Below, piece after piece: positions 1-18,070 of a stretch of 28,260 nucleotides of DNA (within the stretch, counting starts at the first letter, position 1; every line of letters begins with the position of its first letter). The notes beneath the pieces were generated by a model. That model ran no database searches. It worked only from the letters and a program-made list of their open reading frames with translations, and was not told where the DNA came from. Where the stretch lies: positions 1-28,260 of IMG/VR virus record IMGVR_UViG_3300050821_003433. One strand, given 5' to 3'. Origin of the DNA: a virus. The position numbers and the translations under genes are program-made.

Positions 1-483
1 CATGATGCCCGTTACGGAGGAGCAAACGGCGAAGATCACACTGACGGAATTGGCTATATCGACTCGGCATCTGCTCCGAACAATATAACTATCGACCATT
101 GCACTGTGACATCCTTCGGCCTTGAGGATGGCATCGCAATGCAGGGGAGCACAACGGGGTACACGAATTGGATAGTTAACAACTGTTATCTAACCGGGTT
201 TGATTACACATACTTTTTGTTTACCGCGCCAACATCTGGAGTTCAGATAACTAATAATGTCATAAGCGGAGACATCGCTTGGACATTCGTTCCTTCCTCA
301 GCGCAGAACGCTTGGTTCACGGGACGACCGAACGGCAACATATGGTCAAACAACACCCTAAGAATTAACCCCGGCGACACGGATGTCGCGTTCATCCAAG
401 GAAGCTATGTCCATTATACATCTAGCCAAAATGGCTACTACATTTATCCGGATGCCAGCTATCACGCGACGGACTTTACATGA
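1..483 (+). CDS. Beta-helix (pectin-lyase-fold) surface protein, C-terminal part
   Basis: The reading frame is open from the first base of the window, so the N-terminus lies outside it; 160 residues are visible. The segment has the short, polar, Asn/Thr/Gly-rich rungs of a right-handed parallel beta-helix (for example NNITIDHCTV and VQITNNVISG). It matches the C-terminal part of the protein encoded at 1412-2476: HTDGIGYI against HTDGPGYL, ITIDHCTV against ILCDHCTI, and the ends YPDASYHATDFT against WPDATLHSTDYTG. Beta-helix proteins in phages are commonly tailspikes or surface depolymerases, but no catalytic residues can be assigned here. The DNA is visibly richer in A and T than the tail genes downstream. 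The stop overlaps the next start (ATGA). That it is a gene is secure; a receptor or depolymerase role is inference. Confidence 0.8.
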   Translation, partial: HDARYGGANGEDHTDGIGYIDSASAPNNITIDHCTVTSFGLEDGIAMQGSTTGYTNWIVNNCYLTGFDYTYFLFTAPTSGVQITNNVISGDIAWTFVPSSAQNAWFTGRPNGNIWSNNTLRINPGDTDVAFIQGSYVHYTSSQNGYYIYPDASYHATDFT

Positions 484-701
484 GGGGCAATCTTGAACCT
501 GGATGGGTTTGTCCTGCCTGCGGCCTGACGCGGGGCGACGACCTCTGCGACCCTTGTTTGGGTCACTTACCCGGCGTGAAGGGTGCCTGTTGCCATCATG
601 GTGACGAAAATGCTTTAGGCTACATCAAGTTTGAGAATGGAACGCGGATCTACTTCAAACTGCATTCTGTTTTCCAATCCAGCACAGGAATGATTGTGTG
701 A
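480..701 (+). CDS. Small Cys-rich putative zinc-binding protein
   Basis: This 73-residue protein is not recognised as a named family. Its N-terminal half has paired cysteines and histidines that could bind zinc: CPAC (residues 11-14), CDPC (23-26) and CCHHG (37-41). The C-terminal half (GYIKFENGTRIYF) looks like a short beta-hairpin. The start overlaps the upstream stop by ATGA, and its own stop overlaps the next start by TGATG, so it is translationally coupled between two structural-type genes. Other tiny Cys-rich genes occur in the window at 7939-8034, 8031-8174 and 26508-26750. A regulatory or structural zinc role is possible but not shown. Confidence 0.7.
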   Translation: MRGNLEPGWVCPACGLTRGDDLCDPCLGHLPGVKGACCHHGDENALGYIKFENGTRIYFKLHSVFQSSTGMIV

Positions 702-1411
702 TGTGGGAAGTCGTACCTTTCTCTGCTGCCGTGACGCCACCACCTCCGCCGCCCGTCCCATGGACGTTTGGCGCCAAAACAGTTGGACCTCGGTCATCAG
801 CAGCGACTAGCGCGTCTATTCCGCTCCCGACCAACTCTGCCGGCGACCTCCTGTTTTTTGTATTCACCACATTGGATGTCTCTAACACTAATGACCCAGG
901 CAATCCCACGCTTCCGGGTGGTTGGACGACAATCGACAGCACAAACCTCCCCGGTAATTTCTCAGCGGATTGCCATGTTACGGTAGCCTACAAGGTTTCA
1001 AATGGCGCTGAAGGAGCGTCGATTAGTGTAAGTTGGTCGCTCTCGCAGCCGTTCGACTTTCTTATGCAGACGATCACTCCTCCTCCAGGCAAGTCGGCAG
1101 TGTTCGATACGTATGCCGCCAACTCTAGCCCAGGCCGGGAAATATCGCATGGGAGTCCAACCCTATCCGGTCTCGTTACTGCACAAGATTTGCTACTAGA
1201 TGTGTGGGTCGATGCGGGAGGTCAGAATCCGTACTCACTCGATCCGCTTATGACTCTTGTCTATCTGGAGAATCAGGGAGCAGGTAATACTGGAAACATA
1301 ACTGTCGGAACAATCAACGTTCTAAGCAGCACATCCGCTCTATCATATACAGAAACTGCAGGAGGTCTGGCCGTGTTCAGATCGCTCGCTGTTGCGTACA
1401 AGGCGGTCTAG
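701..1411 (+). CDS. Beta-sandwich phage surface protein
   Basis: This 236-residue protein begins at the ATG that overlaps the upstream TGA (TGATG); an in-frame GTG at 698 would add one residue. After a short poly-Pro stretch (PPPPPPVPW, about residues 16-24) comes a Ser/Thr-rich beta-sandwich. It has the pattern NSAGDLLFFVFTTLD, then PGGWTTIDS, then VAYKVSNGAEG, which is typical of small immunoglobulin/fibronectin-like domains attached to phage tail proteins. The first ~240 residues of the repeat protein at 2483 have the same overall design (NGDLILGGLCD, VVAEFSGG), so the two are probably distant paralogues. It sits between two beta-helix genes. A role in the virion as an adhesion or decoration protein is inferred. 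Confidence 0.75.
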   Translation: MWEVVPFSAAVTPPPPPPVPWTFGAKTVGPRSSAATSASIPLPTNSAGDLLFFVFTTLDVSNTNDPGNPTLPGGWTTIDSTNLPGNFSADCHVTVAYKVSNGAEGASISVSWSLSQPFDFLMQTITPPPGKSAVFDTYAANSSPGREISHGSPTLSGLVTAQDLLLDVWVDAGGQNPYSLDPLMTLVYLENQGAGNTGNITVGTINVLSSTSALSYTETAGGLAVFRSLAVAYKAV

Positions 1412-2476
1412 ATGTTTTTAACGAAACCATTAGCTCGGATATTTCCGCTACCTCCTCCTCTTGACAATTTTCCGGGCCGACCAACTAATCCAGTCGGATT
1501 TGCTGCTGCGCCCGGTTATCCAGGGAGCTTGACTCCATCTAGCGGTCCATTCACCAGTGGATCACCCGGTAACCCGACAATCGTTTCGTTCAAAGATTTC
1601 GATGCCGGCGTCAGCAGCACGAATATCAATGCAGACTGGATTACATTCGTTGGTTGCCGGTTCCAGAGTAACGCCATAAGCGCCAATAATGTGTCATCTG
1701 GCGGCACGGGCTGCCGCAACATCATATTCTCTTACTGCAGCTTTACTCCGCGAGCAGCATTATACACGGGTCCGCCTGGACTGGCGTGGCCATCGGCTGG
1801 CGCCGGTTTGCAAACTACGACGTTTGTCAATGACGTGAACTGTGTCAACGGAGTTTTAGGCTATCAGTACGGATTTGATTGTCACAATCTAACCGACGGA
1901 CCTATTACGTGGGACCATTGTGATTTATGGGGCTACGGTAACGCCATCAACTTTATCGGCCATACCGCACAGATGACGATGCAGGATTGCTGGATTCACG
2001 ACTGCGCGAACGCTGCTCCGCAGGGCTACCACACCGATGGTCCGGGATATCTGAATGGCGGAACTCCTCCACAGAACATCCTTTGCGATCACTGCACCAT
2101 AGCCTCGATTGGCAATACGAACGCGTGGGCCTTTCAAGCAGCAACGTCAGCCTATGTTAATATCAAAGTTCGCCGAAGCTTCTTCTCCGGGATGAATGTC
2201 TGCGTCGAGATGTGTCGCGACGTGTTATCTTCGACCGGACTGGAGTTCACCGACAACATCTTCGGCACCGATCTGCCATGGGTCAATGGACCAATAGGCG
2301 GCGCATCCATGTTTATATCGAACGGCTTTCCGGTCAACGTCTGGAGACGGAATACGTTAAGGGTACTTCCCGGCACGTCTACGATTGCAGGCCAACAATT
2401 CTCTTGGGTACCCACTGACGACGGAAAGTACGTGTGGCCGGACGCCACATTGCACTCGACTGACTATACGGGATGA
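1412..2476 (+). CDS. Beta-helix (pectin-lyase-fold) tailspike-like protein
   Basis: This 354-residue protein starts at the ATG immediately after the upstream TAG, with AAGG a short distance before it. After a Pro-rich N-terminus (residues 12-45) it runs as a series of parallel beta-helix rungs (WITFVGCRF, NIIFSYCSF, PITWDHCDLWG, MTMQDCWIHD, ILCDHCTIAS, LEFTDNIFG). It carries many cysteines in equivalent rung positions. The C-terminal ~160 residues are paralogous to the truncated gene at the window start. Proteins of this fold bind or cleave host surface polysaccharide in other phages; no catalytic centre is recognisable here. It may be a spike or a decoration on the capsid or neck, because it lies upstream of the neck and sheath genes rather than with the distal fibres. 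Confidence 0.8.
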   Translation: MFLTKPLARIFPLPPPLDNFPGRPTNPVGFAAAPGYPGSLTPSSGPFTSGSPGNPTIVSFKDFDAGVSSTNINADWITFVGCRFQSNAISANNVSSGGTGCRNIIFSYCSFTPRAALYTGPPGLAWPSAGAGLQTTTFVNDVNCVNGVLGYQYGFDCHNLTDGPITWDHCDLWGYGNAINFIGHTAQMTMQDCWIHDCANAAPQGYHTDGPGYLNGGTPPQNILCDHCTIASIGNTNAWAFQAATSAYVNIKVRRSFFSGMNVCVEMCRDVLSSTGLEFTDNIFGTDLPWVNGPIGGASMFISNGFPVNVWRRNTLRVLPGTSTIAGQQFSWVPTDDGKYVWPDATLHSTDYTG

Positions 2477-2482
2477 TGGGTT

Positions 2483-5400
2483 GTGGCCTGGGCACTCGTT
2501 CAAAATGCCGCGATGATCAACCAGACGGTCATTACTCCGACCGTTGCGGTGACGAACCCTATTGCCTCGGGCAATCTCTACTGCGGCGCGGTGATCTATA
2601 ACTCTACCGAAACCCTAAATTCTATCACGGATGACAAGTCCAACACATACAACATCAAGAACACCACCACGCAGACAACTGATCTAGTCAAAATCAGCAA
2701 TTTCGTTCTTGGTAATATTACGAATGGCCCTAAAACCATAACTTTCCATTTCAGCGCAGCAACCGACTCTGCTGCGGTTGTCGCTGAGTTCTCCGGGGGG
2801 CTGGCCGCCAGCGATCCGAGCGACGGATCGACCGGCCAACAGCAAACCAACGTTGCAGCCGGTGCGAATAATGTAACCACGGGTACTTTCGTCCCTACGA
2901 CCAATGGCGACCTCATTCTAGGCGGTTTGTGCGACCCTAACACTGTAACTGCCTGCACCGTTGGCACCAGCCCGAACGCTTTCACGAACGTCAATACCGC
3001 CAGCAACTCGACCAACCTCGCGGGTTTGCGGCTGGAATACTTTGTCCAGACGACCGCAGCCTCAATTGCGGCGACGGGCGGCATTGCGGCGAACGGCGAC
3101 GACGCCGTCAGCAACGTCGTCGCTTTCAAGCCTGCAACTGGTGCTGCGACGACGGTCGGCTGGGGCTTTGATCCTGGCCTTCCGACGGTCCTAAAACGAC
3201 CCACGCGTCGTGATGCCGCGCCATGGAATAGCATCTCGCGGGTTGAAGAGGAGACGCCTCCGAGCCCGTGGCTTAATGTGGGCTGGGAGATTCAGCCGCC
3301 GCAACCGCCACACCCGCGCCCAGAAAAGTTCGGGGCAACAATCGGAGGCGATCCAGGGACCGAATTCACGGAAATCCGGTGGCAAAACTCTGGCTGGGAA
3401 ATTCAATCGGTCCAGCCCGCAAACCCGGCCACGACGAATCTCTCGCGCAGCAATCGTCTAGCCGCGTCATCATTTGCGCGAGGTGATGACGGTACGGAAT
3501 TTCCACAGGTCCAATGGTTCAATGCCGGCGGAGAGATCCAGCCATTTCAGCCGCCGAATCCGGCGACGACGAATATATCTCGGAACAATCGCCGATGGGC
3601 GGCGCTGGTCAACGGCGACGACGCATCTGGCGATGAATCTGCGACTACCAATTGGAGAAACTTCGGTTTTGAAATCCAGTCGGTCCAACCGCCGAATCCG
3701 ACCACCACGAATATATCTCTCAACAATCGGCGCGCTGCCACATTGGCGCAGGGCGATGGCGGTTTCTATCAGCCGATAGTGCCTCAAGTTCAGGTGATAA
3801 ACTGGGGATTTGATGCGCAGCCGATCCAGCCTCCGCGATTCCGGTTGCAGCGCTGGGCATCCATCGTCGATGGAGATGACGCATCCGGCGATGAAACGGC
3901 GACTGTCAACTGGATAAATTCCGGGTGGGAGACTCAGTCGGTCCAACCGCCAAAATTGCGACTTCAAAGATGGGCGTCGTTCGTCAACGGAGACGATGCG
4001 TCTGGCGAAGACAGCCCGCTTGTCAACTGGTTCAATGTTGGGGGTGAGGTCCAACATCCTCAGCCGCCGCATCCTCGTCGAGAGAGATCGGGCGCGGTCG
4101 CTCCGCTGTCGAATGTCGAGTCGGTCTTTGTCCCGCCTGTCGTGACTGCGCCGAGCCTCTTTGACAGCGTCCTACCTACTCTCAAAATACGATGGGGAAA
4201 CAGAGCCGAAGCGGCTGGAGGTGATACGCAATTTGTCGCCTTTGACATGCAACCATGGCAGGAGCCGCAGAGCGTCCAACCGCCGCATCCGCGCAGGGAA
4301 CGCAGCGGGTCAATTCAGCGCGGCGATGATGGGATTGAAAACATCATCCCGCAGGTAGCGATTATCTACAACTGGGGCTTTGAGCCTGTCTTTCCGCCAT
4401 CAAAAGCACGGCCGACCTACTTCTCCGGGGCTGTAGCTAAGGGCGATGATGGGATTGAGCTGACACCTATCAACTGGCTCAATTCGGGGTCGGAAATTCA
4501 GAGCATCCAGCCGCCACATCGGCGACCGGAACGTTCAGGAGCGCTGGCTAAAGGTGATGAGGGAGTCGAGAATCCCTACGTTTTTGTTGCATCGACGGTC
4601 GTTCAGTGGGGTTTCGACGGGGTATGGCCTCAACCTCCGCACCCTCGGCCGGAACGTTCAGGAGCAATTCAACGCGGAGATGATGGCACTGAGAATCCGT
4701 TCATCTTCATCGCGCCGCCGGTTATATCGTGGGGGTTCGATGCACAAGCGGTCCAGCCGCCGCGCCTGCGATGGGAACGCCGCGGCTCTGGACTGGGAGG
4801 CAAGATCGGGTTCACGGTCCCTGCGCAGTGGTTCAATTATGGTTGGGAAATCCAACCGCCGCAGCCGCCGCATCCTAAGCCTGAACGCAATGGCGCGATC
4901 ATGCGCGGCGATGACGGGACGGAAAACCCTATTCCGGTCATCTTACCGCCGACGATCGTCAACTGGGGCTACGACGGGGTTTGGCCGCAGCCGCCGCGCG
5001 CACCCAAGATTAGGCAGCGGGGCTCCGGTGCTAGAGGCCAATCATCGTTTGGTATCCTCCCGAACTTCGTCACCTGGGGCGGCGAGGTGCAATGCTTCCA
5101 GCCGCCGCACCCCCGGCCCGAGAAATCGGGCTCAATCGCCAAGGGCGACGAGGGGATTGAGAACCGCTTCATCTTCGTTCCGATCCAAGTCATCAACTGG
5201 GGTTACGACGGAGTCTGGCCGCAGCCGCCTCACCCTCGACCGGAAAAGTCAGGATCGATCCAGAGAGGCGATGAGGGGATCGAATCTACCTACATCTTTG
5301 TACCACCGACAATTGTGCTGCGTGGATATGAGGGAGTTTGGCCGCAACCACCGCATCCACGGAGGGAAAAAGCGGGCGCAATCATGCCGATCGAGCCCGG

Positions 5401-5758
5401 CATTGAATCAACGTATGTTTTCGTCCCGCCGACGATCGTCAATTGGGGCTTTGATGGAGTCTATCCGCAGCCGCCACATCCCAGACCTGAAAGGGGAGAG
5501 GCAATCTGCGGCAGCGTCGATTTTGAATTTAGCGATAGCTTCCCTTGGCTCACCCTATTCCAGGAGCCGCCGCTCCGTCATCTCAGGTGGGAGAAGTCCG
5601 GTGGCATCATGCCGATCGAACCGGGAATTGAGGCGACCTACATCTTTGTGCAACGAAGAGGAGTCTTCTACGCTAAATCGACCATCACGTCGGCAACAGG
5701 CCAGACTGTGATAAGCAGGGCCAAGACGCAGACGATCGTAAAGGGCGAACCGGCATGA
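2483..5758 (+). CDS. Giant Trp/Pro repeat protein with N-terminal beta-sandwich
   Basis: This 1091-residue protein is of unknown function. The only upstream start in frame that keeps the N-terminal domain is GTG at 2483, preceded by GGG. Residues 1 to ~225 form a Ser/Thr/Asn-rich beta-sandwich similar in design to the protein at 701-1411. From about residue 227 to 1056 there are about 20 imperfect repeats of 37-47 residues built around NWGFDGVWPQPPHPRPERSG followed by an acidic turn such as RGDDGTEN. The C-terminal ~35 residues (from YAKSTITSATGQ) leave the repeat pattern. There is no signal peptide or membrane segment. It is coupled to the next gene by ATGA. An elongated virion fibre is the simplest idea, but this is inference only. 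Confidence 0.85.
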   Translation: MAWALVQNAAMINQTVITPTVAVTNPIASGNLYCGAVIYNSTETLNSITDDKSNTYNIKNTTTQTTDLVKISNFVLGNITNGPKTITFHFSAATDSAAVVAEFSGGLAASDPSDGSTGQQQTNVAAGANNVTTGTFVPTTNGDLILGGLCDPNTVTACTVGTSPNAFTNVNTASNSTNLAGLRLEYFVQTTAASIAATGGIAANGDDAVSNVVAFKPATGAATTVGWGFDPGLPTVLKRPTRRDAAPWNSISRVEEETPPSPWLNVGWEIQPPQPPHPRPEKFGATIGGDPGTEFTEIRWQNSGWEIQSVQPANPATTNLSRSNRLAASSFARGDDGTEFPQVQWFNAGGEIQPFQPPNPATTNISRNNRRWAALVNGDDASGDESATTNWRNFGFEIQSVQPPNPTTTNISLNNRRAATLAQGDGGFYQPIVPQVQVINWGFDAQPIQPPRFRLQRWASIVDGDDASGDETATVNWINSGWETQSVQPPKLRLQRWASFVNGDDASGEDSPLVNWFNVGGEVQHPQPPHPRRERSGAVAPLSNVESVFVPPVVTAPSLFDSVLPTLKIRWGNRAEAAGGDTQFVAFDMQPWQEPQSVQPPHPRRERSGSIQRGDDGIENIIPQVAIIYNWGFEPVFPPSKARPTYFSGAVAKGDDGIELTPINWLNSGSEIQSIQPPHRRPERSGALAKGDEGVENPYVFVASTVVQWGFDGVWPQPPHPRPERSGAIQRGDDGTENPFIFIAPPVISWGFDAQAVQPPRLRWERRGSGLGGKIGFTVPAQWFNYGWEIQPPQPPHPKPERNGAIMRGDDGTENPIPVILPPTIVNWGYDGVWPQPPRAPKIRQRGSGARGQSSFGILPNFVTWGGEVQCFQPPHPRPEKSGSIAKGDEGIENRFIFVPIQVINWGYDGVWPQPPHPRPEKSGSIQRGDEGIESTYIFVPPTIVLRGYEGVWPQPPHPRREKAGAIMPIEPGIESTYVFVPPTIVNWGFDGVYPQPPHPRPERGEAICGSVDFEFSDSFPWLTLFQEPPLRHLRWEKSGGIMPIEPGIEATYIFVQRRGVFYAKSTITSATGQTVISRAKTQTIVKGEPA
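3161..5650 (+). repeat. About 20 tandem 37-47-codon repeats inside the 1091-aa protein
   Basis: The repeat is seen in protein rather than as exact DNA copies. Each unit has W-G-[FYW]-[DE], then a QPP core (QPPHPRPERSG, QPPNPATTN or QPPRLRWER), then a Gly/Asp-rich turn (GDDG, GDEG, GDDASGDE or IEPGIE). QPP cores at codons starting 3302, 3413, 3548, 3686, 3827, 3944 and 4061 give spacings of 37, 45, 46, 47, 39 and 39 codons. Early units are of the PNPATTN type and later ones mostly PHPRPER. The distribution suggests local duplication followed by divergence. Confidence 0.85.
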
Positions 5759-6093
5759 GCCTACCGAGCAGCACGCAGGTCATTGTCAGGGGAGCAACTG
5801 TCCAGTTCGTGACGACGTTCTACGATGTGAATAACGTTGTCACGCAGCCCGACAATGCAAAAATCAATATCCAGCCGTCGCAGCCGACCGGGGCATCTCC
5901 GGTGACGATCGCAATGACGCCGCCCACTCTTCCGGCGGTGACGTGGACCGCACTCTGGGACACGCGAGGCATCACCGCCCCGCAAACCATCTATTGGTCG
6001 ATCCATACGGGTGTCACCGATCCGATCCCGGTGACGGCCGAGGATGGCTATTTCAACCTGTCGGCCAACCCGGCCAATCTGGTGACCTTCTGA
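5755..6093 (+). CDS. Small beta-sandwich structural protein
   Basis: This 112-residue protein starts at the ATG overlapping the stop of the repeat protein (ATGA). The pattern of alternating hydrophobic strands (VIVRGATVQFVTTFYD, then AKINIQPSQPTG, then VTWTALWDTRG, ending AEDGYFNLSAN) looks like one immunoglobulin-like fold. No catalytic motif or signal peptide is visible. It is coupled to the next gene by TGATG. Small Ig-like proteins of this size are frequent in phage structural regions; the exact place in the virion cannot be told. Confidence 0.75.
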   Translation: MSLPSSTQVIVRGATVQFVTTFYDVNNVVTQPDNAKINIQPSQPTGASPVTIAMTPPTLPAVTWTALWDTRGITAPQTIYWSIHTGVTDPIPVTAEDGYFNLSANPANLVTF

Positions 6094-6901: not shown

Positions 6902-7335
6902 GACACATTCTTTTTCTATGTGCCGCACTAATTCTACTCGTGATTTATGAGGTCGACGCTTTCTCCCACGTCCCCGGCGAAGAACACCACATCAGTGATC
7001 AGAGGCGAGCCGAACTCAACGAATGGTTCAACACTGTCAAATCGGGCCGAGGTCCGTGCTGCTCAAACGGTGACGGTGATGTCGTCTCCGACTCTGATTG
7101 GGTTTCGCAGGACAAGCCGGGCAGCCATTATCGCGTCAAACTGCCCTATGACGGCAATTCTCTGATATCGAATCGTTTCATGACCGAGGGAAAGAACTAC
7201 GACTGGAAGTGGGTGGACGTGCCCGACGACGCGGTTGTGACGCAGCCAAACCTCTATGGTAGGACCATGGTCTGGCCAGTCATGGGAGAAGGGTCGAAGA
7301 TGATCCGATGCTTCATGCCTGGGAGCATGACTTGA
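6898..7335 (+). CDS. Secreted/periplasmic hypothetical protein with GPCCSNGDGD motif
   Basis: This 145-residue protein starts with GTG overlapping the upstream stop (GTGA). Residues 1-21 look like a signal peptide (RHILFLCAALILLVIYEVDA), followed by a soluble domain beginning FSHVPGEEHHISDQRR. Within it are GRGPCCSNGDGD and DSDWVSQDKPG, then Trp/Asp-rich segments and a single later cysteine (MIRCFMPGS). The GPCC-x-x-GDG pattern is one I associate with small exported hypothetical proteins of Rhizobiales and their phages, without a known function. The Asp-rich turn could bind a metal. It is placed among structural genes and may be an accessory host-modifying gene. Confidence 0.7.
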   Translation: MRHILFLCAALILLVIYEVDAFSHVPGEEHHISDQRRAELNEWFNTVKSGRGPCCSNGDGDVVSDSDWVSQDKPGSHYRVKLPYDGNSLISNRFMTEGKNYDWKWVDVPDDAVVTQPNLYGRTMVWPVMGEGSKMIRCFMPGSMT

Positions 7336-7346
7336 GGTCTTACGAA

Positions 7347-7928
7347 ATGAAACTGTTCAAGAGCACGCTGCTATTGCTGGTCACGCTGGCGCTGTGTTTG
7401 GTCCTTCGTGGTGCCGACGCGCAGCAACCCGGTATCCCTGCGGCGGCGGTCGGCTACTGCCAGATCCCTGCGGCCTCGACCACCTCGGCGGTGGGCTTCT
7501 CGGCCTGTGTGGCGGCATCCTTCACCGGCACGTGCTCCGGATCGACCATCACAGCATCCGCAGTGACCGGCGACATCGGCGTGGGTTGGCCGCTGTCGGG
7601 CACGGGAATCACGGCCGGCACCTACGTCCTGGCGCTGGGGACGAGCACGGGCGGTGCGGGAACGCTTGTCGCTTCGCAGTCCTGCACCTCGTCCGGGGCA
7701 TCCTTGACGACTGTCGGCCCGCCGAACGGCGCGAACATGGTCTATCTGCAAGCCGAGGCGCAGAACGCTCGCTGGCGAGATGACGGGGCGAGCCCGACGA
7801 CCACGGTCGGCATGCTGCTTCTGACCACGCAGAATCCGACAGTCTACAACGGACCGATCCAGTTCTGGAAAGTCATCAACGCGACTGCCGGAACGATCAT
7901 CGACGCGTCGTTCTACCACTCGCCGTAA
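7347..7928 (+). CDS. Secreted phage surface protein with recurrent beta domain
   Basis: This 193-residue protein starts at ATG 7347 (TGAGG lies upstream), giving a clear signal peptide (residues 1-25, LLLLVTLALCLVLRGADAQ). Residues ~59-121 are a copy of the Gly/Thr-rich beta domain also seen in the neck, sheath and baseplate J proteins (GSTITASAVTGDIGVGWPLS, GTGITAGTY, LGTSTGGAGT), here with extra cysteines. The C-terminal ~65 residues (VYLQAEAQNARWRDDGASPT, then VYNGPIQFWKVI) match a small beta domain typical of phage virion proteins. A secreted protein made from virion domains is unusual; it could coat the virion after lysis or act on the host surface. Confidence 0.75.
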   Translation: MKLFKSTLLLLVTLALCLVLRGADAQQPGIPAAAVGYCQIPAASTTSAVGFSACVAASFTGTCSGSTITASAVTGDIGVGWPLSGTGITAGTYVLALGTSTGGAGTLVASQSCTSSGASLTTVGPPNGANMVYLQAEAQNARWRDDGASPTTTVGMLLLTTQNPTVYNGPIQFWKVINATAGTIIDASFYHSP

Positions 7929-8034: not shown

Positions 8035-8174
8035 GCAAGCGTAAGCCAATCATCTGTTGCGATTGCGGAGAGCGACCGGCGAAACTCTATTGTCGTTGCT
8101 GGGAATGCTTGGAAAAATGGGCAAAAGGATTCCCTAGACCCACCGCTGTGTCATGCCCATCGTTACAACGATAG
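8031..8174 (+). CDS. Small zinc-ribbon-like peptide (47 aa)
   Basis: The frame begins at ATG 8031, overlapping the previous short frame, and ends 22 bases inside the neck gene. It encodes six clustered cysteines (ICCDCGERPAKLYCRCWEC) followed by a basic/aromatic tail (LEKWAKGFPRP). This spacing resembles a zinc ribbon or zinc knuckle. It lies in a 224-base stretch between two larger genes and otherwise leaves little room for other elements. It resembles the Cys-rich gene at 480-701 in style only, not in alignable sequence. Confidence 0.45.
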   Translation: MSKRKPIICCDCGERPAKLYCRCWECLEKWAKGFPRPTAVSCPSLQR

Positions 8175-8905
8175 GTCCAACGCAATCCGACGCGCAGGCC
8201 GCACTTCGCGCGTGGCTGCTGGACTCCTTTCCGGCCGTGTCCGTTGTGGCAGCGCAGGCGAATCGGATTGCTGAGCCGACAGCGACGACCTTCATCGTCA
8301 TGACTCCAATCCTCTATCGGCGGAACGACACCAACCTCGACACCTATGCCGATGCCGTGTTTACCGGGTCGGTTGCGGGAAGCCTGATGACGGTTTCCGC
8401 GATGCGGGCGGGGAGCCATTCCATCTTGCCGAACTCCTTCCTGTTCGGCGTCAACGTTCCGACGGGAGTCGTCATCACATCGCAGGCGTCAGGGACTCCG
8501 GGCGGGACCGGGACCTACAATCTCAGCCAGTCATTCTCGCAATCATCCGAGACGCTAGCGAGCGGATCGCAAAACCTGCAGCTCAACGCAGAACTAACAA
8601 TTCAACTTGATTTTCACAGCGCGGATACTTCGGCTGCGGAAATGGCCGAGACGACATCGACGCTATTCCGCGATGACGTCGCCTGCACGTACTTCGCCGC
8701 GCTGCCGTCGCCGCAAAACCGAATCTTTCCGCTGTACGCCGACAATCCCGCGCAGCGACCGTTCATCAACGATCAGCAGCAGTATGAATGGCGATGGGTG
8801 CTCGACGTGTGTATGCAGGTCAACCAGATCGTTGCTATACCGAGGCAGTTCGCCGACACCGTGTCGATTACGCGAATCGCGGTCGACGAGTTTTATGTCC
8901 CCTGA
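8153..8905 (+). CDS. Phage neck/tail terminator protein (LIC_12616-type)
   Basis: This 250-residue protein probably joins the tail tube end to the neck. The N-terminus (QSDAQAALRAWLLDSFP) and the C-terminal region (LTIQLDFHSADTSAAEMAE, then YEWRWVLDVCMQVNQIV) match the LIC_12616/neck terminator family found just ahead of DUF3383 sheath genes. Residues ~70-138 are an insertion of the recurrent Gly/Ser/Thr beta domain (FTGSVAGSLMTVSAMRAG onward), placed in the loop between LDTYADAV and LQLNAELTIQ. Family members without this insert are correspondingly shorter. The start overlaps the small Cys-rich gene. The family call comes from motif memory and position. Confidence 0.75.
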   Translation: MPIVTTIGPTQSDAQAALRAWLLDSFPAVSVVAAQANRIAEPTATTFIVMTPILYRRNDTNLDTYADAVFTGSVAGSLMTVSAMRAGSHSILPNSFLFGVNVPTGVVITSQASGTPGGTGTYNLSQSFSQSSETLASGSQNLQLNAELTIQLDFHSADTSAAEMAETTSTLFRDDVACTYFAALPSPQNRIFPLYADNPAQRPFINDQQQYEWRWVLDVCMQVNQIVAIPRQFADTVSITRIAVDEFYVP

Positions 8906-8947: not shown

Positions 8948-10951
8948 GTGGCAACTATTCCCGCCCGCGATATTGTCCAAGTAAATCCCGGAGTCCTCCC
9001 GGCGGGCGGCAATGCGCTCGACATCATCGGACTGATGCTGACGAACTCCACGCGGCCACCGATCGGCTCAATCGTGACGTTCGCGAGTGCCGCTGATGCA
9101 TCAGCGTACTTCGGGCTGGCCTCGACCGAGTTCTCGCTTGCGACGGTCTACTTCAACGGCTTCGACAATTCCCACAAGAAGCCGGGATCAATGCTGTGCG
9201 CGCAATACAATCAGGGTGCGGTCGACGCATTCCTGCGCGGCGGGTCGGTGGCGAGCCTGACGGTCGCGCAGCTCGCAGCGATCAACGGAACGCTGATCAT
9301 CACTGTGGACGGCTACGCGCGCAACGCCTCGGCCCTCAATCTGTCTGCTGCGACGAGCTTCTCAAGTGCGGCCGGCATCATTCAGACTGCCCTCAATGCG
9401 GGTGGTGCCAATCCCACCGTCGTGACATCGCTCACGTCAACCATCGCGGCCGGAACCTTCACCGCAACCGGATCGATCGCTGGAAACCTGCTCTATGTCA
9501 CGGCGGTGGGGTCCGGCTCCGTTGTCGTCGGCGGCACCATCACCGGCACGGGCGTTACGGCCTCGACGATCATCACCGGCCAGCAATCGGGCACGGCGAA
9601 CGGCATCGGCGTCTATACCGTCAACAACAATCAGGTCGTTGCTTCGACGTCGCTATCGGGCACCTATGGCACCATGACTGTCACTGCGCCCTCTTCGGGC
9701 ACGTGGTCGGTCGGCCAGACCGTATCCGGCGGCACAACGACGGTTGGAACGCAGGTTACCGCATTGGGGACGGGAACCGGCGGGGTTGGCACGTATATCG
9801 TCAGCCCGACTCAGACCGTGGCGTCGGCAACCCTCACGGGGGCAGGATCGAACGTCACGGTCACTTTTGACTCGACCTCGGGCGGATTCCTGATCACATC
9901 CGGGGTGATCGCGGCCAATTCGACCACGTCGACCATTGCCTATGCGACCGGGACCACGGCAGATCCGCTTAACCTGCGCCAGGCCGACGGCGCGGTGATC
10001 TCGCAGGGGTCGGCCGGACTGACGCCTGCCGCCTTCATGGCCGGCATCGTCGCGGTCACCGGAAATTGGGCGACCTTCTTCACGGTCGTTGACCCGGACT
10101 CCGGTTTAACCAGCGGCATCAACACGCAGAAGCAGGCATTCGCGGCGTGGGTCAATTCGACCAGCAATCAGTATTGCTATGTCTGCTGGGACAACGACAC
10201 CACGGTATCGACCGTTCTGCCATCGTCGACCAGCCTCGGCGATATCCTCGCGGCGGCTAACTCCTCGGGTGTCGCGCTGATCTGGGCTCCGGATGCCACG
10301 CAGGGGCCGATCAAGGCCGCATTCATCTCGGGCGCCGCAGCCTCTATTGATTTCAGCCAACTCAATGGCCGCATCACCTTCGCATTCCGGTCCCAGACTG
10401 GGCTCGTAGCCGACGTCACCAACCAGACCGTTGCCCATAATCTCGGCGGCGATCCGCAGGCGATCGGTTCTCGCGGGAATTTCTATAACTTCTACGGCGT
10501 GTATGCGACGCGGTCTCAGAGCTTCGTTTTTTTCAATCGGGGCTTCGTGAGTGGGCCATTCTTGTGGTTGGACTCCTACATCGACCAGATTTGGCTTAAT
10601 AACGCGCTGCAGCAAGCGTTGATGGAGCTTTTGGTCAACGTCTACTCAATCCCCTACAACAACACTGGATATGCGCTGATTGAGGCGGCGTGCCTAGACT
10701 CGATCAACGCTGCCGTGAACTTCGGCGCTATCCGCCAAGGCATCACGCTGTCGAACGCGCAGATTGCCGAACTGAATTTCCAGGCCGGTATCGACATCTC
10801 GCAGCCGATTCAGACGCAGGGCTGGTACCTACAGGTGAAAGATCCGGGCGCCCAGGTCCGCGCCGCGCGGGCCTCGCCTAGCTGCACGCTTTGGTACACC
10901 GATGGCCAGAGCGTCCAAGCAATCATTCTCGCAAGCATCGAGATCCAGTAA
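8948..10951 (+). CDS. Contractile tail sheath protein (DUF3383)
   Basis: This 667-residue protein polymerises around the tail tube and contracts on infection. It starts with GTG, preceded by GGAGGA at 8938-8943. The N-terminus (DIVQVNPGVLPAGGNALDII), the segment VTFDSTSGGFLITSG, the segment NWATFFTVVDPDSG and the C-terminus (GWYLQVKDPGAQVRA) match the DUF3383 sheath family. Residues ~169-301 hold two consecutive copies of the recurrent Gly/Thr beta domain between the helix SAAGIIQTALNAGG and the strand VTFDSTSGG. This makes it longer than the ~500 residues usual for the family. The tube gene follows after 9 bases, as is normal for these phages. Confidence 0.9.
   Translation: MATIPARDIVQVNPGVLPAGGNALDIIGLMLTNSTRPPIGSIVTFASAADASAYFGLASTEFSLATVYFNGFDNSHKKPGSMLCAQYNQGAVDAFLRGGSVASLTVAQLAAINGTLIITVDGYARNASALNLSAATSFSSAAGIIQTALNAGGANPTVVTSLTSTIAAGTFTATGSIAGNLLYVTAVGSGSVVVGGTITGTGVTASTIITGQQSGTANGIGVYTVNNNQVVASTSLSGTYGTMTVTAPSSGTWSVGQTVSGGTTTVGTQVTALGTGTGGVGTYIVSPTQTVASATLTGAGSNVTVTFDSTSGGFLITSGVIAANSTTSTIAYATGTTADPLNLRQADGAVISQGSAGLTPAAFMAGIVAVTGNWATFFTVVDPDSGLTSGINTQKQAFAAWVNSTSNQYCYVCWDNDTTVSTVLPSSTSLGDILAAANSSGVALIWAPDATQGPIKAAFISGAAASIDFSQLNGRITFAFRSQTGLVADVTNQTVAHNLGGDPQAIGSRGNFYNFYGVYATRSQSFVFFNRGFVSGPFLWLDSYIDQIWLNNALQQALMELLVNVYSIPYNNTGYALIEAACLDSINAAVNFGAIRQGITLSNAQIAELNFQAGIDISQPIQTQGWYLQVKDPGAQVRAARASPSCTLWYTDGQSVQAIILASIEIQ
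9452..9850 (+). repeat. Two tandem copies of a recurrent beta domain inside the sheath gene
   Basis: Copy one (about 9452-9661) and copy two (about 9662-9850) share the pattern of a first strand pair, then VGGTITGTGVTAST or VGQTVSGGTTTVGT, then GVGTYIVS-type residues, then QTVASATLTG or QVVASTSLSG. Similar units occur at about 7521-7713, 8360-8568 and 17798-17983. They lie at loops of conserved structural proteins and appear as protein-level, not exact DNA-level, repeats. Confidence 0.8.
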
Positions 10952-10960
10952 GGGGCGAAT

Positions 10961-11395
10961 ATGGCTTCGATCACCTCTGCAAATACGATCATCATGATGT
11001 CGGTGGTCGGGGTCTTTAACTCGCCGGTTCAAATGCAGCAGTTCGCGGCCGATGACATCTTCGGGAACGACTCCATCCCAGGGTCAGAAGTTGCCATGGG
11101 TGTAGACGGGCACATGACAGCCGGTTTTGTGTTTGCCCCGATCCCTTGGTCAATCCACCTGATGGGCGACGCTACGCCATCAACTGATTTGTTCGATGGA
11201 TGGTATTTGGCAAACAAGAAACAGGTCGACGTTTTCTATGCCAACGCCACGATCCTGATGCCGAGTTTAAGCAAGAAGTACACGCTAACGCGCGGCGCGC
11301 TGACAAACTACAAGGTGATGCCGGACGCCGGGAAAACGATACGGACCCGCACCTATACCGTCACGTGGCAAAGCATCGCCCCGTCAAATCTGTAA
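10961..11395 (+). CDS. Tail tube protein (DUF3277-type)
   Basis: This 144-residue protein forms the inner tail tube. It lies directly downstream of the sheath gene, and the sequence (FNSPVQMQQFAADDIFGND, then MGVDGHMTAGFVFAPIPWSI, then RTRTYTVTWQSI) matches the small tube family DUF3277 that follows DUF3383 sheaths. The size fits the family. AGGGG precedes the ATG. The tail assembly chaperone and tape measure genes that follow are in the standard myophage order. It does not carry the beta-domain insert found in its neighbours, as expected for a protein that is buried under the sheath. Confidence 0.85.
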   Translation: MASITSANTIIMMSVVGVFNSPVQMQQFAADDIFGNDSIPGSEVAMGVDGHMTAGFVFAPIPWSIHLMGDATPSTDLFDGWYLANKKQVDVFYANATILMPSLSKKYTLTRGALTNYKVMPDAGKTIRTRTYTVTWQSIAPSNL

Positions 11396-16666: not shown

Positions 16667-18070
16667 ATGGCTTGGCCTCAACCGTCCTTCGGCCCCACCG
16701 GGTTTGTGGCGCCTGCGGAGTCCGATATTCTGACGGAGGCGAAGGCCGAGATCAACGCGGCGTTTTCCAACGATCTCAACATGGCATCCGAGACGCCGCA
16801 GGGCCAGATCGCGGTCTCGATGGCGGCGGCGATCGGCAATGCGAACGATTCGTTCGTCTTTTTGAGCAATCAGTTCGATCCGGCCTTCAATTCCGGACGC
16901 TACCAAGACGCCATCGCCCGCATCTATTTCATCTCGCGGATTGCGGCGACTGCCACTGCGGTGAACGTCACCGTCACGGGTCTGGCTGGCGTGGTGATTC
17001 CGGCGAACTCCCTCGTGGTGGACGCGGCCGGCAATCTCTATGCCTCAGCTGGTTCGATCACCATCCCCGCGTCCGGAACTATCATTGCTGAATTTCTGTG
17101 CACGACGCTGGGGCCGATCGCCTGTCCTGCAGGAAGCATCTCCACGATCTACCAAGCCATTAACGGCTGGGACACGGCAACCAATGCCACCGACGGCGTC
17201 GTTGGGCTGTCCACGGAGACGCCACATCAGTTCGAGCAGCGCAGAGCCCTCTCGGTCGCCAACAACGCTCAGGGCTCGCTGCCGGCGGTGCTGGGCGCGA
17301 TCCTCGTCACCTCGGGCGTCACCGATGCCTTCGTGACGGAAAACGTCCAGCAGACCTCGCAGACCATCCGGGGCTTCTCGCTGAACCCGAACTCAATCTA
17401 TGCGGCGGTGGTGGGCGGGACGGACTCCGCTGTGGCGCAGGCGCTGTGGACAAAGAAGTCGCCCGGCTGCGGCTACAACGGCTCCACGACGGTGACCGTG
17501 TTCGACACCAATCCGGTCTACAGCCCGCCGTTCCCATCCTACCAAGTCAGCTTCGTTCGTCCGTCCTTTCAGACCGTGACCTTTCAGGTAACGATCCAGA
17601 ATAGCGCCCAGGTGCCCGCCAACGCGCTCACCTTGATCCAAAACGCCATCGTGTCAGCCTTCAATGGCGGCGACGGCGGACCGAGGGCACGGATCGGCTC
17701 GACCATCTTCGCCTCGCGATTTTATGGTCCAGTCTATGCGCTTGGCAGTTGGGCGCAGATCGTCAACATCAAGATCGGCTGTGACAACTCTCCGCAGGCG
17801 ACCTTCGTCGGGTCGATCTCGGGGTCGACACTGACGGTCACCTCAGTGACGAGCGGATTGATTGCAGTCGGACAGCAAGTCACCGGCAACGGTGTGGTGG
17901 CAGGCACCCAGATTCTAGCCGGCGGCGGCCTAAGCTGGACGGTTAGCAACACGCAGACCGTGGCCAGCGGGACCATGTTTGGCGTCGTCGAGACGCAAGA
18001 CGAAATCCTGATCGACATTGATCAGAGCCCGGTCACAGCGGCCGGAAATACTGAGTTGGTCCTGCTGTGA
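16667..18070 (+). CDS. Baseplate J-like wedge protein
   Basis: This 467-residue protein is the main wedge component, related to Mu gp47 and P2 gpJ. The family pattern is clear: ESDILTEAKAEINAAFSND, then ETPQGQIAVSMAAAIGNAND, AFNSGRYQDAIARIYFISR, the beta domain with PANSLVVDAAGNLYAS, then ETPHQFEQRRALSVANNAQG. Residues ~378-439 are an inserted copy of the recurrent beta domain (FVGSISGSTLTVTSVTSG to QTVASGTMFG), lying between VNIKIGCDNSPQ and DEILIDIDQSP, which would otherwise be joined by a short loop. The stop overlaps the next start (GTGA). Confidence 0.9.
   Translation: MAWPQPSFGPTGFVAPAESDILTEAKAEINAAFSNDLNMASETPQGQIAVSMAAAIGNANDSFVFLSNQFDPAFNSGRYQDAIARIYFISRIAATATAVNVTVTGLAGVVIPANSLVVDAAGNLYASAGSITIPASGTIIAEFLCTTLGPIACPAGSISTIYQAINGWDTATNATDGVVGLSTETPHQFEQRRALSVANNAQGSLPAVLGAILVTSGVTDAFVTENVQQTSQTIRGFSLNPNSIYAAVVGGTDSAVAQALWTKKSPGCGYNGSTTVTVFDTNPVYSPPFPSYQVSFVRPSFQTVTFQVTIQNSAQVPANALTLIQNAIVSAFNGGDGGPRARIGSTIFASRFYGPVYALGSWAQIVNIKIGCDNSPQATFVGSISGSTLTVTSVTSGLIAVGQQVTGNGVVAGTQILAGGGLSWTVSNTQTVASGTMFGVVETQDEILIDIDQSPVTAAGNTELVLL

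What the first reader, a model, noticed from the sequence alone, without database searches (positions are those of the whole stretch)
9452..9850. One recurrent beta domain inserted into loops of several different virion proteins
A ~60-70-residue Gly/Thr/Ser-rich unit (pattern TVTAVTSG, VGQTVSGTGV, GTGTGGVGTY, QTVAS) occurs twice in the sheath (9452-9850), once each in the neck protein (8360-8568) and baseplate J (17798-17983), and once in the secreted protein (7521-7713). In the three conserved tail proteins it separates sequence blocks that are adjacent in family members lacking it. This looks like a phage-specific decoration module spread between genes that share exposed surface, while the buried tube and plug lack it.
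Basis: partly seen in the sequence, partly recalled or inferred. Interest (0 to 1): 0.8.

Follow-up and report, generated by a model that had tools for sequence, protein, structure and literature searches.

The report
Shared surface barrel across phage virion proteins
One small, uncatalogued protein barrel is inserted at fixed sites in the capsid-decoration, head-closure, neck, tail-sheath and baseplate proteins of a family of soil and freshwater contractile-tailed phages, as if much of the particle's outside wore the same coat, while the inner parts never carry it.

Summary
A ~62-residue Thr/Gly-rich module occurs five times in the window (sheath twice; neck terminator, baseplate J and a small secreted-looking protein once each). 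A profile built only from sheath and capsid copies of other phages finds the window's neck, J and small-protein copies at E 1e-9 to 1e-10; 500 shuffles of each stay below 10 bits. In 114 related loci I found 486 copies in 300 proteins, all in known virion or tail-cluster families. New hosts are the XM1-gp53-type capsid decoration protein (2-3 copies) and a head-closure protein. Insertion sites are discrete, with clean empty-site relatives. Tube, tape measure, hub, spike and major capsid protein never carry it. Copies fall into site-specific lineages, so the insertions are old and inherited in place, not recently spread. They are under purifying selection (dN/dS about 0.2) and nearly uncharged. 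AlphaFold2 gives the same strand order in sheath and capsid contexts; the closest solved folds are EF-Tu domain-2 barrels and the cement protein of Arthrobacter phage Bridgette. No Pfam or NCBIfam model covers it. Best reading: an accessory surface domain that works like phage Ig-like domains but has a different fold. Its function is not shown.

The parts
7308..7928 (+). Small protein with signal-peptide-like N terminus; family conserved in the head-to-neck gene cluster; host of one module
   Evidence: Family in 29 ORFs of the related loci, 24 without and 5 with the module; one fixed insertion column in the 5
7521..7709 (+). Module copy in the small protein
   Evidence: Leave-family-out profile 35.8 bits, E 1.6e-9
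8153..8905 (+). Tail terminator (neck) protein, PF23961, host of one module
   Evidence: Pfam E 2.6e-18; 70 of 106 homologues carry the module
8360..8560 (+). Module copy in the neck terminator
   Evidence: Leave-family-out profile 37.9 bits, E 3.6e-10; empty site in Pantoea phage PA-1
8948..10951 (+). Tail sheath protein (DUF3383, PF11863), host of two tandem modules
   Evidence: Pfam E 2.1e-114; 90 of 115 homologues carry 1-3 modules at one site; AF2 mean pLDDT 88.4
9464..9658 (+). Sheath module 1
   Evidence: Leave-family-out profile 49.9 bits, E 6.9e-14
9656..9838 (+). Sheath module 2
   Evidence: Leave-family-out profile 57.6 bits, E 2.9e-16
10961..11395 (+). Tail tube protein, never a host (contrast)
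   Evidence: 114 homologous ORFs, none with a module
16667..18070 (+). Baseplate J / wedge protein (PF04865), host of one module
   Evidence: Pfam E 1.9e-10; 61 of 85 homologues carry 1-3 modules
17804..17977 (+). Module copy in baseplate J, shortened in the GTGTGG loop
   Evidence: Leave-family-out profile 37.1 bits, E 6e-10; empty site in PA-1

Best explanation
The segment is an uncatalogued ~62-residue beta-barrel module. It was inserted long ago, singly or as a tandem pair, into loops of several virion proteins: capsid decoration protein, head-closure protein, tail terminator, sheath and baseplate J. Since then it has been inherited at those fixed sites. Assembled into particles with many sheath and decoration subunits, it would form a repetitive, nearly uncharged, Thr/Gly-rich outer layer over head, neck, tail and baseplate, while the inner parts stay free. 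The most likely role is a virion-wide accessory surface function like that proposed for phage Ig-like domains: weak, low-specificity attachment to cell-surface or matrix polysaccharide and/or shielding from non-specific sorption. It is not a variable receptor-binding determinant. Shown by computation: homology, insertion sites, co-occurrence, selection, composition, and the same predicted strand order in two contexts. Inferred: projection from the surface. Hypothesis: the biochemical role.
For: 486 copies in 300 proteins of 114 loci; every ORF hit among 16,592 belongs to a virion or tail-cluster family. Discrete sites: sheath columns 166-178 of 529 (one exception at 202); neck 70/71 and 28/29; gp53 156-162; J mainly 384. 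Empty sites in PA-1. Inner proteins 0 of 91-114 each, major capsid 0 of 72. Presence correlated among gp53, neck, sheath and J: 31 of 54 loci all present, 9 none, Fisher p 5e-5 to 4e-8, not corrected for phylogeny. Nearest neighbour in distant genomes is the same site for gp53.1 37/38, gp53.2 36/38, sheath.2 71/77, sheath.1 63/78, J 34/40, neck 36/50. Sheath and gp53 pairs are alike in register in 25 of 32 genomes, p 5e-5. Module dN/dS 0.19-0.26. Charged residues 2-4% in modules versus 9-19% in cores; 110 of 481 modules have none. AF2 strand pattern repeated in sheath and gp53. Best solved folds: EF-Tu domain-2 barrels, Z up to 7.7, and Bridgette 8eci_1, Z 6.7, 32% identity over 66 residues; Bridgette is described as having dimeric capsid cement proteins (PMC13033339).
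Against: No binding, shielding or cementing activity is shown. Z of 6-8 can reflect a common barrel arrangement, and no sequence search links the module to 8eci or EF-Tu. The co-occurrence is confounded by ancestry, since most module-free loci are Achromobacter, Bordetella, Burkholderia and Pandoraea prophages, and 14 of 54 loci are mixed. Some presumably exposed proteins (major capsid, small wedge) never carry it. Low charge may partly be lineage composition, since the sheath core itself has only 8.5% charged residues.
Confidence: 0.5

Rival explanations
1. Cementing: the modules stabilise capsid, neck and sheath by contacting neighbouring subunits, like trimeric or dimeric capsid cement proteins.
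For: One main host is a gp53-type decoration protein; the nearest phage fold is chain 1 of Bridgette, a phage described as having dimeric capsid cement proteins. Additional sheath domains have been proposed to stabilise the sheath (PMC9230969). Purifying selection.
Against: The same module sits in proteins with very different symmetry partners (trimeric decoration protein, hexameric terminator, helical sheath that rearranges, J), so one conserved interface is unlikely. It has few charged residues. Module-free orthologues exist for every main host family.
Confidence: 0.25
2. Tolerated cargo: surface loops are permissive sites where a foldable barrel does no harm, so it persists without a virion-level function.
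For: Insertion into permissive loops; similar sequences in unrelated proteins (tail fibres, a head-closure Hc3 family, giant-virus collagen-like proteins).
Against: dN/dS about 0.2 in modules, close to the sheath core. Persistence at the same site among sheaths whose cores are only 30-60% identical. Presence correlated across four genes.
Confidence: 0.15
3. A variable adhesin or host-range determinant, diversified by selection or repeat recombination.
For: Tandem copies, copy number 0-3, location partly on sheath and baseplate.
Against: Sheath modules diverge at about the rate of the sheath core; same-site copies are mostly 0.81-0.97 identical when cores are above 0.8 (lower, 0.65-0.70, for the neck and first gp53 copies at core 0.8-0.9). 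No excess of non-synonymous change. No homogenisation between sites within a genome.
Confidence: 0.05
4. Compositional artefact: unrelated Gly/Thr/Ser-rich linkers that look alike.
For: Strong compositional bias (about 60% G, S, T and A).
Against: Shuffles with the same composition stay below 10 bits versus 36-58 observed. Conserved pattern G18, G23, G28, T35, G43, G45, G48, Y50. pLDDT mostly above 85-90 in the modules in two contexts.
Confidence: 0.01

Closest known systems
Phage Ig-like domains (Big2, I-set, FN3 groups; Fraser et al. 2006 and 2007, as cited in PMC10276861 and PMC8718954) and added sheath domains (PMC9230969)
   Same: Accessory beta domains inserted into or appended to exposed phage structural proteins, shared between unrelated proteins, absent from many family members; weak carbohydrate binding has been proposed for them.
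   Different: Different predicted fold (barrel resembling EF-Tu domain 2); no Ig-like Pfam or NCBIfam match. Here one genome carries the same module in up to five different virion proteins, at fixed sites and with correlated presence.
Arthrobacter phage Bridgette, chain 1 of 8eci (124 residues; probably its dimeric capsid cement protein)
   Same: 66 residues superpose at 2.2 A, Z 6.7, 32% identity.
   Different: A separate chain rather than an insert in other virion proteins; no significant sequence match. That chain 1 is the cement protein is inferred.
Vibrio phage XM1 and Pseudomonas phages E217/Pa193 tail and capsid proteins
   Same: Homologous host proteins: sheath Z 32-35 to E217 and Pa193 and 31.7 to XM1; gp53-type decoration protein Z 13-15; J at sequence level. 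XM1's sheath has its own insertion domain.
   Different: Their sheaths (495-504 residues) have no room for this module at the site; XM1's insertion domain is reported to resemble FliD D3 (PMC10457771).
phrog_21413 (unknown function) and phrog_38233 (tail fiber protein)
   Same: Each contains the module internally; 30 and 29 of 34 module sequences match.
   Different: Neither family defines the module as a domain; they are whole-protein clusters.

Membership tests
This module family (profile A6 / modv3) | Conserved pattern G18, G23, G28, T35, G43, G45, G48, Y50 over 64 columns, significant against composition-matched shuffles | tested here: met
   the J copy lacks part of the 41-47 loop but still scores 37 bits
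This module family (profile A6 / modv3) | Same predicted fold in different host proteins | tested here: met
   Strand order repeated in sheath and gp53 AF2 models; J, neck and small-protein copies were not modelled
Phage Ig-like domains | Match to an Ig-like Pfam family (Big, I-set, FN3) | tested here: not met
   No Ig-like family at E <= 0.1 for any of 34 modules
Phage Ig-like domains | Ig beta-sandwich fold | tested here: inconclusive
   Matches to the module region are EF-Tu domain-2 barrels and 8eci_1; no Ig fold in the list, which does not exclude one
EF-Tu domain-2 type barrel | Fold superposition over most of the domain | tested here: inconclusive
   Z 6-7.7, rmsd 2.3-2.8 over about 69 residues; this Z range can be a common arrangement, and there is no sequence support
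Bridgette-type capsid cement protein | Sequence homology | tested here: inconclusive
   29-32% identity in structural alignments but no significant profile or phmmer hit
DUF3383 tail sheath (host) | Pfam PF11863 and contractile sheath fold | tested here: met
   E 2.1e-114; Z 35 to Pa193 sheath
Baseplate J (host) | Pfam PF04865 above cut-off | tested here: met
   40.9 bits versus cut-off 21.1
Tail terminator PF23961 (host) | Pfam model above cut-off | tested here: met
   66.6 bits versus cut-off 27
Carbohydrate-binding surface domain (functional class) | Measured binding to a glycan | not testable with these tools
   Needs experiment

The most novel reading that the evidence does not exclude
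A lineage of contractile-tailed phages carries a whole-virion coat: one undescribed barrel domain placed into each main exposed subunit type (capsid decoration, head closure, neck, sheath, baseplate) as a coordinated, nearly all-or-none character. It would give the particle a uniform, almost uncharged outer surface that sets how it sticks to, or avoids, soil and biofilm polymers.
Probability: 0.3. Interest if true: 0.8.

Novelty: new variant of a known kind. Interest (0 to 1): 0.6.

Why it matters
Why phages graft accessory domains onto virion surfaces is an open question: weak adhesion, stabilisation and passive tolerance have all been proposed. This family puts one and the same domain on several different virion proteins of one particle, with module-free sister genomes as natural controls. 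The role can therefore be tested particle-wide. The domain has no Pfam or NCBIfam entry, so defining it would also help annotate many environmental phage proteins.

Tried and rejected
Recent spreading or gene conversion between genes in one genome: rejected by identity by site versus by genome. Hypervariable adhesin: disfavoured. Composition artefact: rejected by shuffles. Finding the module in cultured phages: short tblastn queries gave nothing, probably because low-complexity masking removes the query, so this shows little; but none of 440 phage records with a sheath match covers 80% of the window's sheath and the best hits span only about 490 codons. PDB sequence searches with the module: no significant hit. 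NCBIfam and Pfam: only stray single-member matches. An early reading of the gp53 pair as a C-terminal tail was corrected: it lies about 28 residues before the C terminus. No Ig fold appeared among the 50 listed matches to the gp53 model; that is not proof of absence. A direct search of viral contigs with the alignment of the five copies failed for lack of conserved stretches. Literature searches for repeated inserted domains found only the Ig-like and sheath-domain papers.

Full report
WHAT IS THERE. The window is a 28.3 kb virus record carrying an XM1/E217-type contractile tail cluster: tail terminator (PF23961), sheath (DUF3383), tube, chaperone-like protein, tape measure, hub, spike, wedge, baseplate J and fibres (names of tube, hub, spike and wedge rest on gene order and on the annotated Pantoea phage PA-1). 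A segment of about 62 residues recurs five times: twice in tandem in the sheath (9464-9658, 9656-9838) and once each in the terminator (8360-8560), in J (17804-17977) and in a small protein with a signal-peptide-like start (7521-7709).

IS IT MORE THAN CHANCE. Because the segment is about 60% Gly, Ser, Thr and Ala, composition is the main worry. I built a profile from sheath and gp53 copies of other genomes, leaving out the window and its closest relatives L042 and L005. It scored the window's terminator, J and small-protein copies at 37.9, 37.1 and 35.8 bits (E 3.6e-10, 6e-10, 1.6e-9). A profile from the remaining families scored the two sheath copies at 49.9 and 57.6 bits. 500 full and 500 module-only shuffles of each protein never exceeded 9.9 bits.

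RELATED LOCI. Sheath searches returned 12 viral loci, then 25 loci in bacterial genomes and 80 in viral contigs; with the window this gave 114 distinct loci. Of their 16,592 ORFs, 300 carry 486 modules. Every ORF hit by the sheath/gp53 profile falls in a family grouped here, nearly all virion proteins. Carrier versus total homologous ORFs: sheath 90/115, terminator 70/106, J 61/85, capsid decoration protein of XM1-gp53 type (PF23982) 54/66, head-closure protein phrog_1912 8/85, small protein 5/29. Never carriers: tube 0/114, chaperone-like 0/111, tape measure 0/91, hub 0/91, spike 0/91, wedge 0/86, protein after J 0/75, major capsid 0/72, protease 0/67, portal 0/24. The viral set is biased towards carriers because the best 80 of 549 matches to a module-bearing query were kept.

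INSERTION SITES. With modules removed and cores aligned, the junctions are discrete: one sheath region (columns 166-178 of 529, one exception), terminator columns 70/71 and 28/29 of 180, gp53 columns 156-162 of 189, J mainly 384 of 413 with minor sites at 236, 342 and 143. Module-free Pantoea phage PA-1 shows the empty sites: 45% identity in sheath, 33% in terminator, 42% in J and 31% in gp53, with flanks adjacent or nearly so. In gp53 the pair sits about 28 residues before the C terminus.

HISTORY. In genomes with sheath cores less than 60% identical, a module's nearest neighbour is the copy at the same site in 37/38 (gp53 first), 36/38 (gp53 second), 71/77 (sheath second), 63/78 (sheath first), 34/40 (J) and 36/50 (terminator). 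Same-genome copies at different sites are no more alike than different-genome copies at those sites. So the insertions are old and inherited in place. The sheath and gp53 pairs are more alike in register than out of register in 25 of 32 genomes (Wilcoxon p 5e-5, genomes not independent), suggesting that a pair was once copied as a unit. Among 54 loci holding all four genes, 31 have the module in all four, 9 in none and 14 are mixed (Fisher p 5e-5 to 4e-8 per gene pair, not corrected for ancestry).

SELECTION AND CHEMISTRY. Median dN/dS is 0.19-0.26 in modules and 0.09-0.21 in cores. Sheath copies diverge at about the rate of the sheath core; the terminator copy diverges faster. Modules have 2.3-4.1% charged residues against 8.5-19% in cores, and 110 of 481 have none. 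The window's sheath and J copies have none.

STRUCTURE. AlphaFold2 gave confident models for the window sheath (mean pLDDT 88.4) and for gp53 of L013 (86.6), with the same strand order in each module. The sheath matches Pa193 (Z 35.0) and E217 (Z 33.5) sheaths; the gp53 core matches capsid decoration proteins including Pa193 (Z 15.0) and XM1 (Z 13.3). The module region matches EF-Tu-type domain-2 barrels (Z up to 7.7, rmsd about 2.5 over 69 residues) and chain 1 of Arthrobacter phage Bridgette (Z 6.7, 66 residues, 32% identity). Z in this range is suggestive only. Bridgette is reported to have dimeric capsid cement proteins (PMC13033339); that chain 1 is this protein is my inference. It is inferred from the XM1 and E217 papers and from the observation that added sheath domains lie away from the tube (PMC9230969).

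WIDER DISTRIBUTION. In most of these the modules sit in an adjacent gene pair: one family with one copy (phrog_12985) and one with two copies (phrog_578, head closure Hc3). Others are fibres, virion structural proteins and an E217-gp24-type cement protein. In bacterial genomes it is rare: 2 of 299 in a phylum sample and 3 of 347 in an order sample, each including the centre. Structure searches find similar stretches in Indivirus collagen-like proteins and in an HK97-type capsid protein of an uncultured phage.

MECHANISM. I favour an accessory surface domain acting through many copies: XM1 has 18 sheath rings of six subunits (PMC10457771) and E217 has 204 sheath copies (PMC10329688), so a two-module sheath alone would show hundreds of modules. 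Purifying selection and near-absence of charge fit a generic weak adhesive or shielding layer better than a variable receptor binder. Cementing is the main rival. None of these roles is demonstrated.

VERDICT. Works like: phage Ig-like accessory domains. Member of: none of the catalogued domain families tested. Novelty: new variant of a known kind, built from an uncatalogued domain.

Noticed in passing
window 2483-5755: A 1091-residue ORF made of many imperfect repeats around 'WGxxxQPxQPPHPRxERSG'; no Pfam or PHROG match, and among the fetched loci only L066 has a relative (about 35% identity), also upstream of the neck genes.
   Followed up: partly
window 1-6090: The left arm lacks recognisable portal, protease, major capsid and gp53 genes that precede the neck in relatives; it holds a weakly pectate-lyase-like protein and the long repeat protein instead.
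   Followed up: partly
L128-L207 (e.g. L130 1767-2963 and 2967-5102): In another phage group the same module sits in an adjacent gene pair: one copy in a phrog_12985 protein and two copies in a head-closure Hc3 (phrog_578) protein.
   Followed up: partly
BFVD hits: Indivirus ILV1 (giant virus) collagen-repeat proteins match the module region at 29-33% identity in structure search, suggesting the module or a look-alike exists outside phages.
   Followed up: no
BFVD hit A0A6J5SIT1: An HK97-type major capsid protein of an uncultured phage matches the module at 37-42% identity over 86-89 columns, although none of the 72 capsid proteins in the XM1-like loci carries it.
   Followed up: no
L199 5794-6543: A structural cement protein of E217 gp24/Pam3 gp6 type (PF22758) also carries one module.
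   Followed up: no
L040 5200-6321: A Herbaspirillum MAG prophage has three modules in gp53 but none in neck, sheath or J, a mixed state useful for ordering gains and losses.
   Followed up: no
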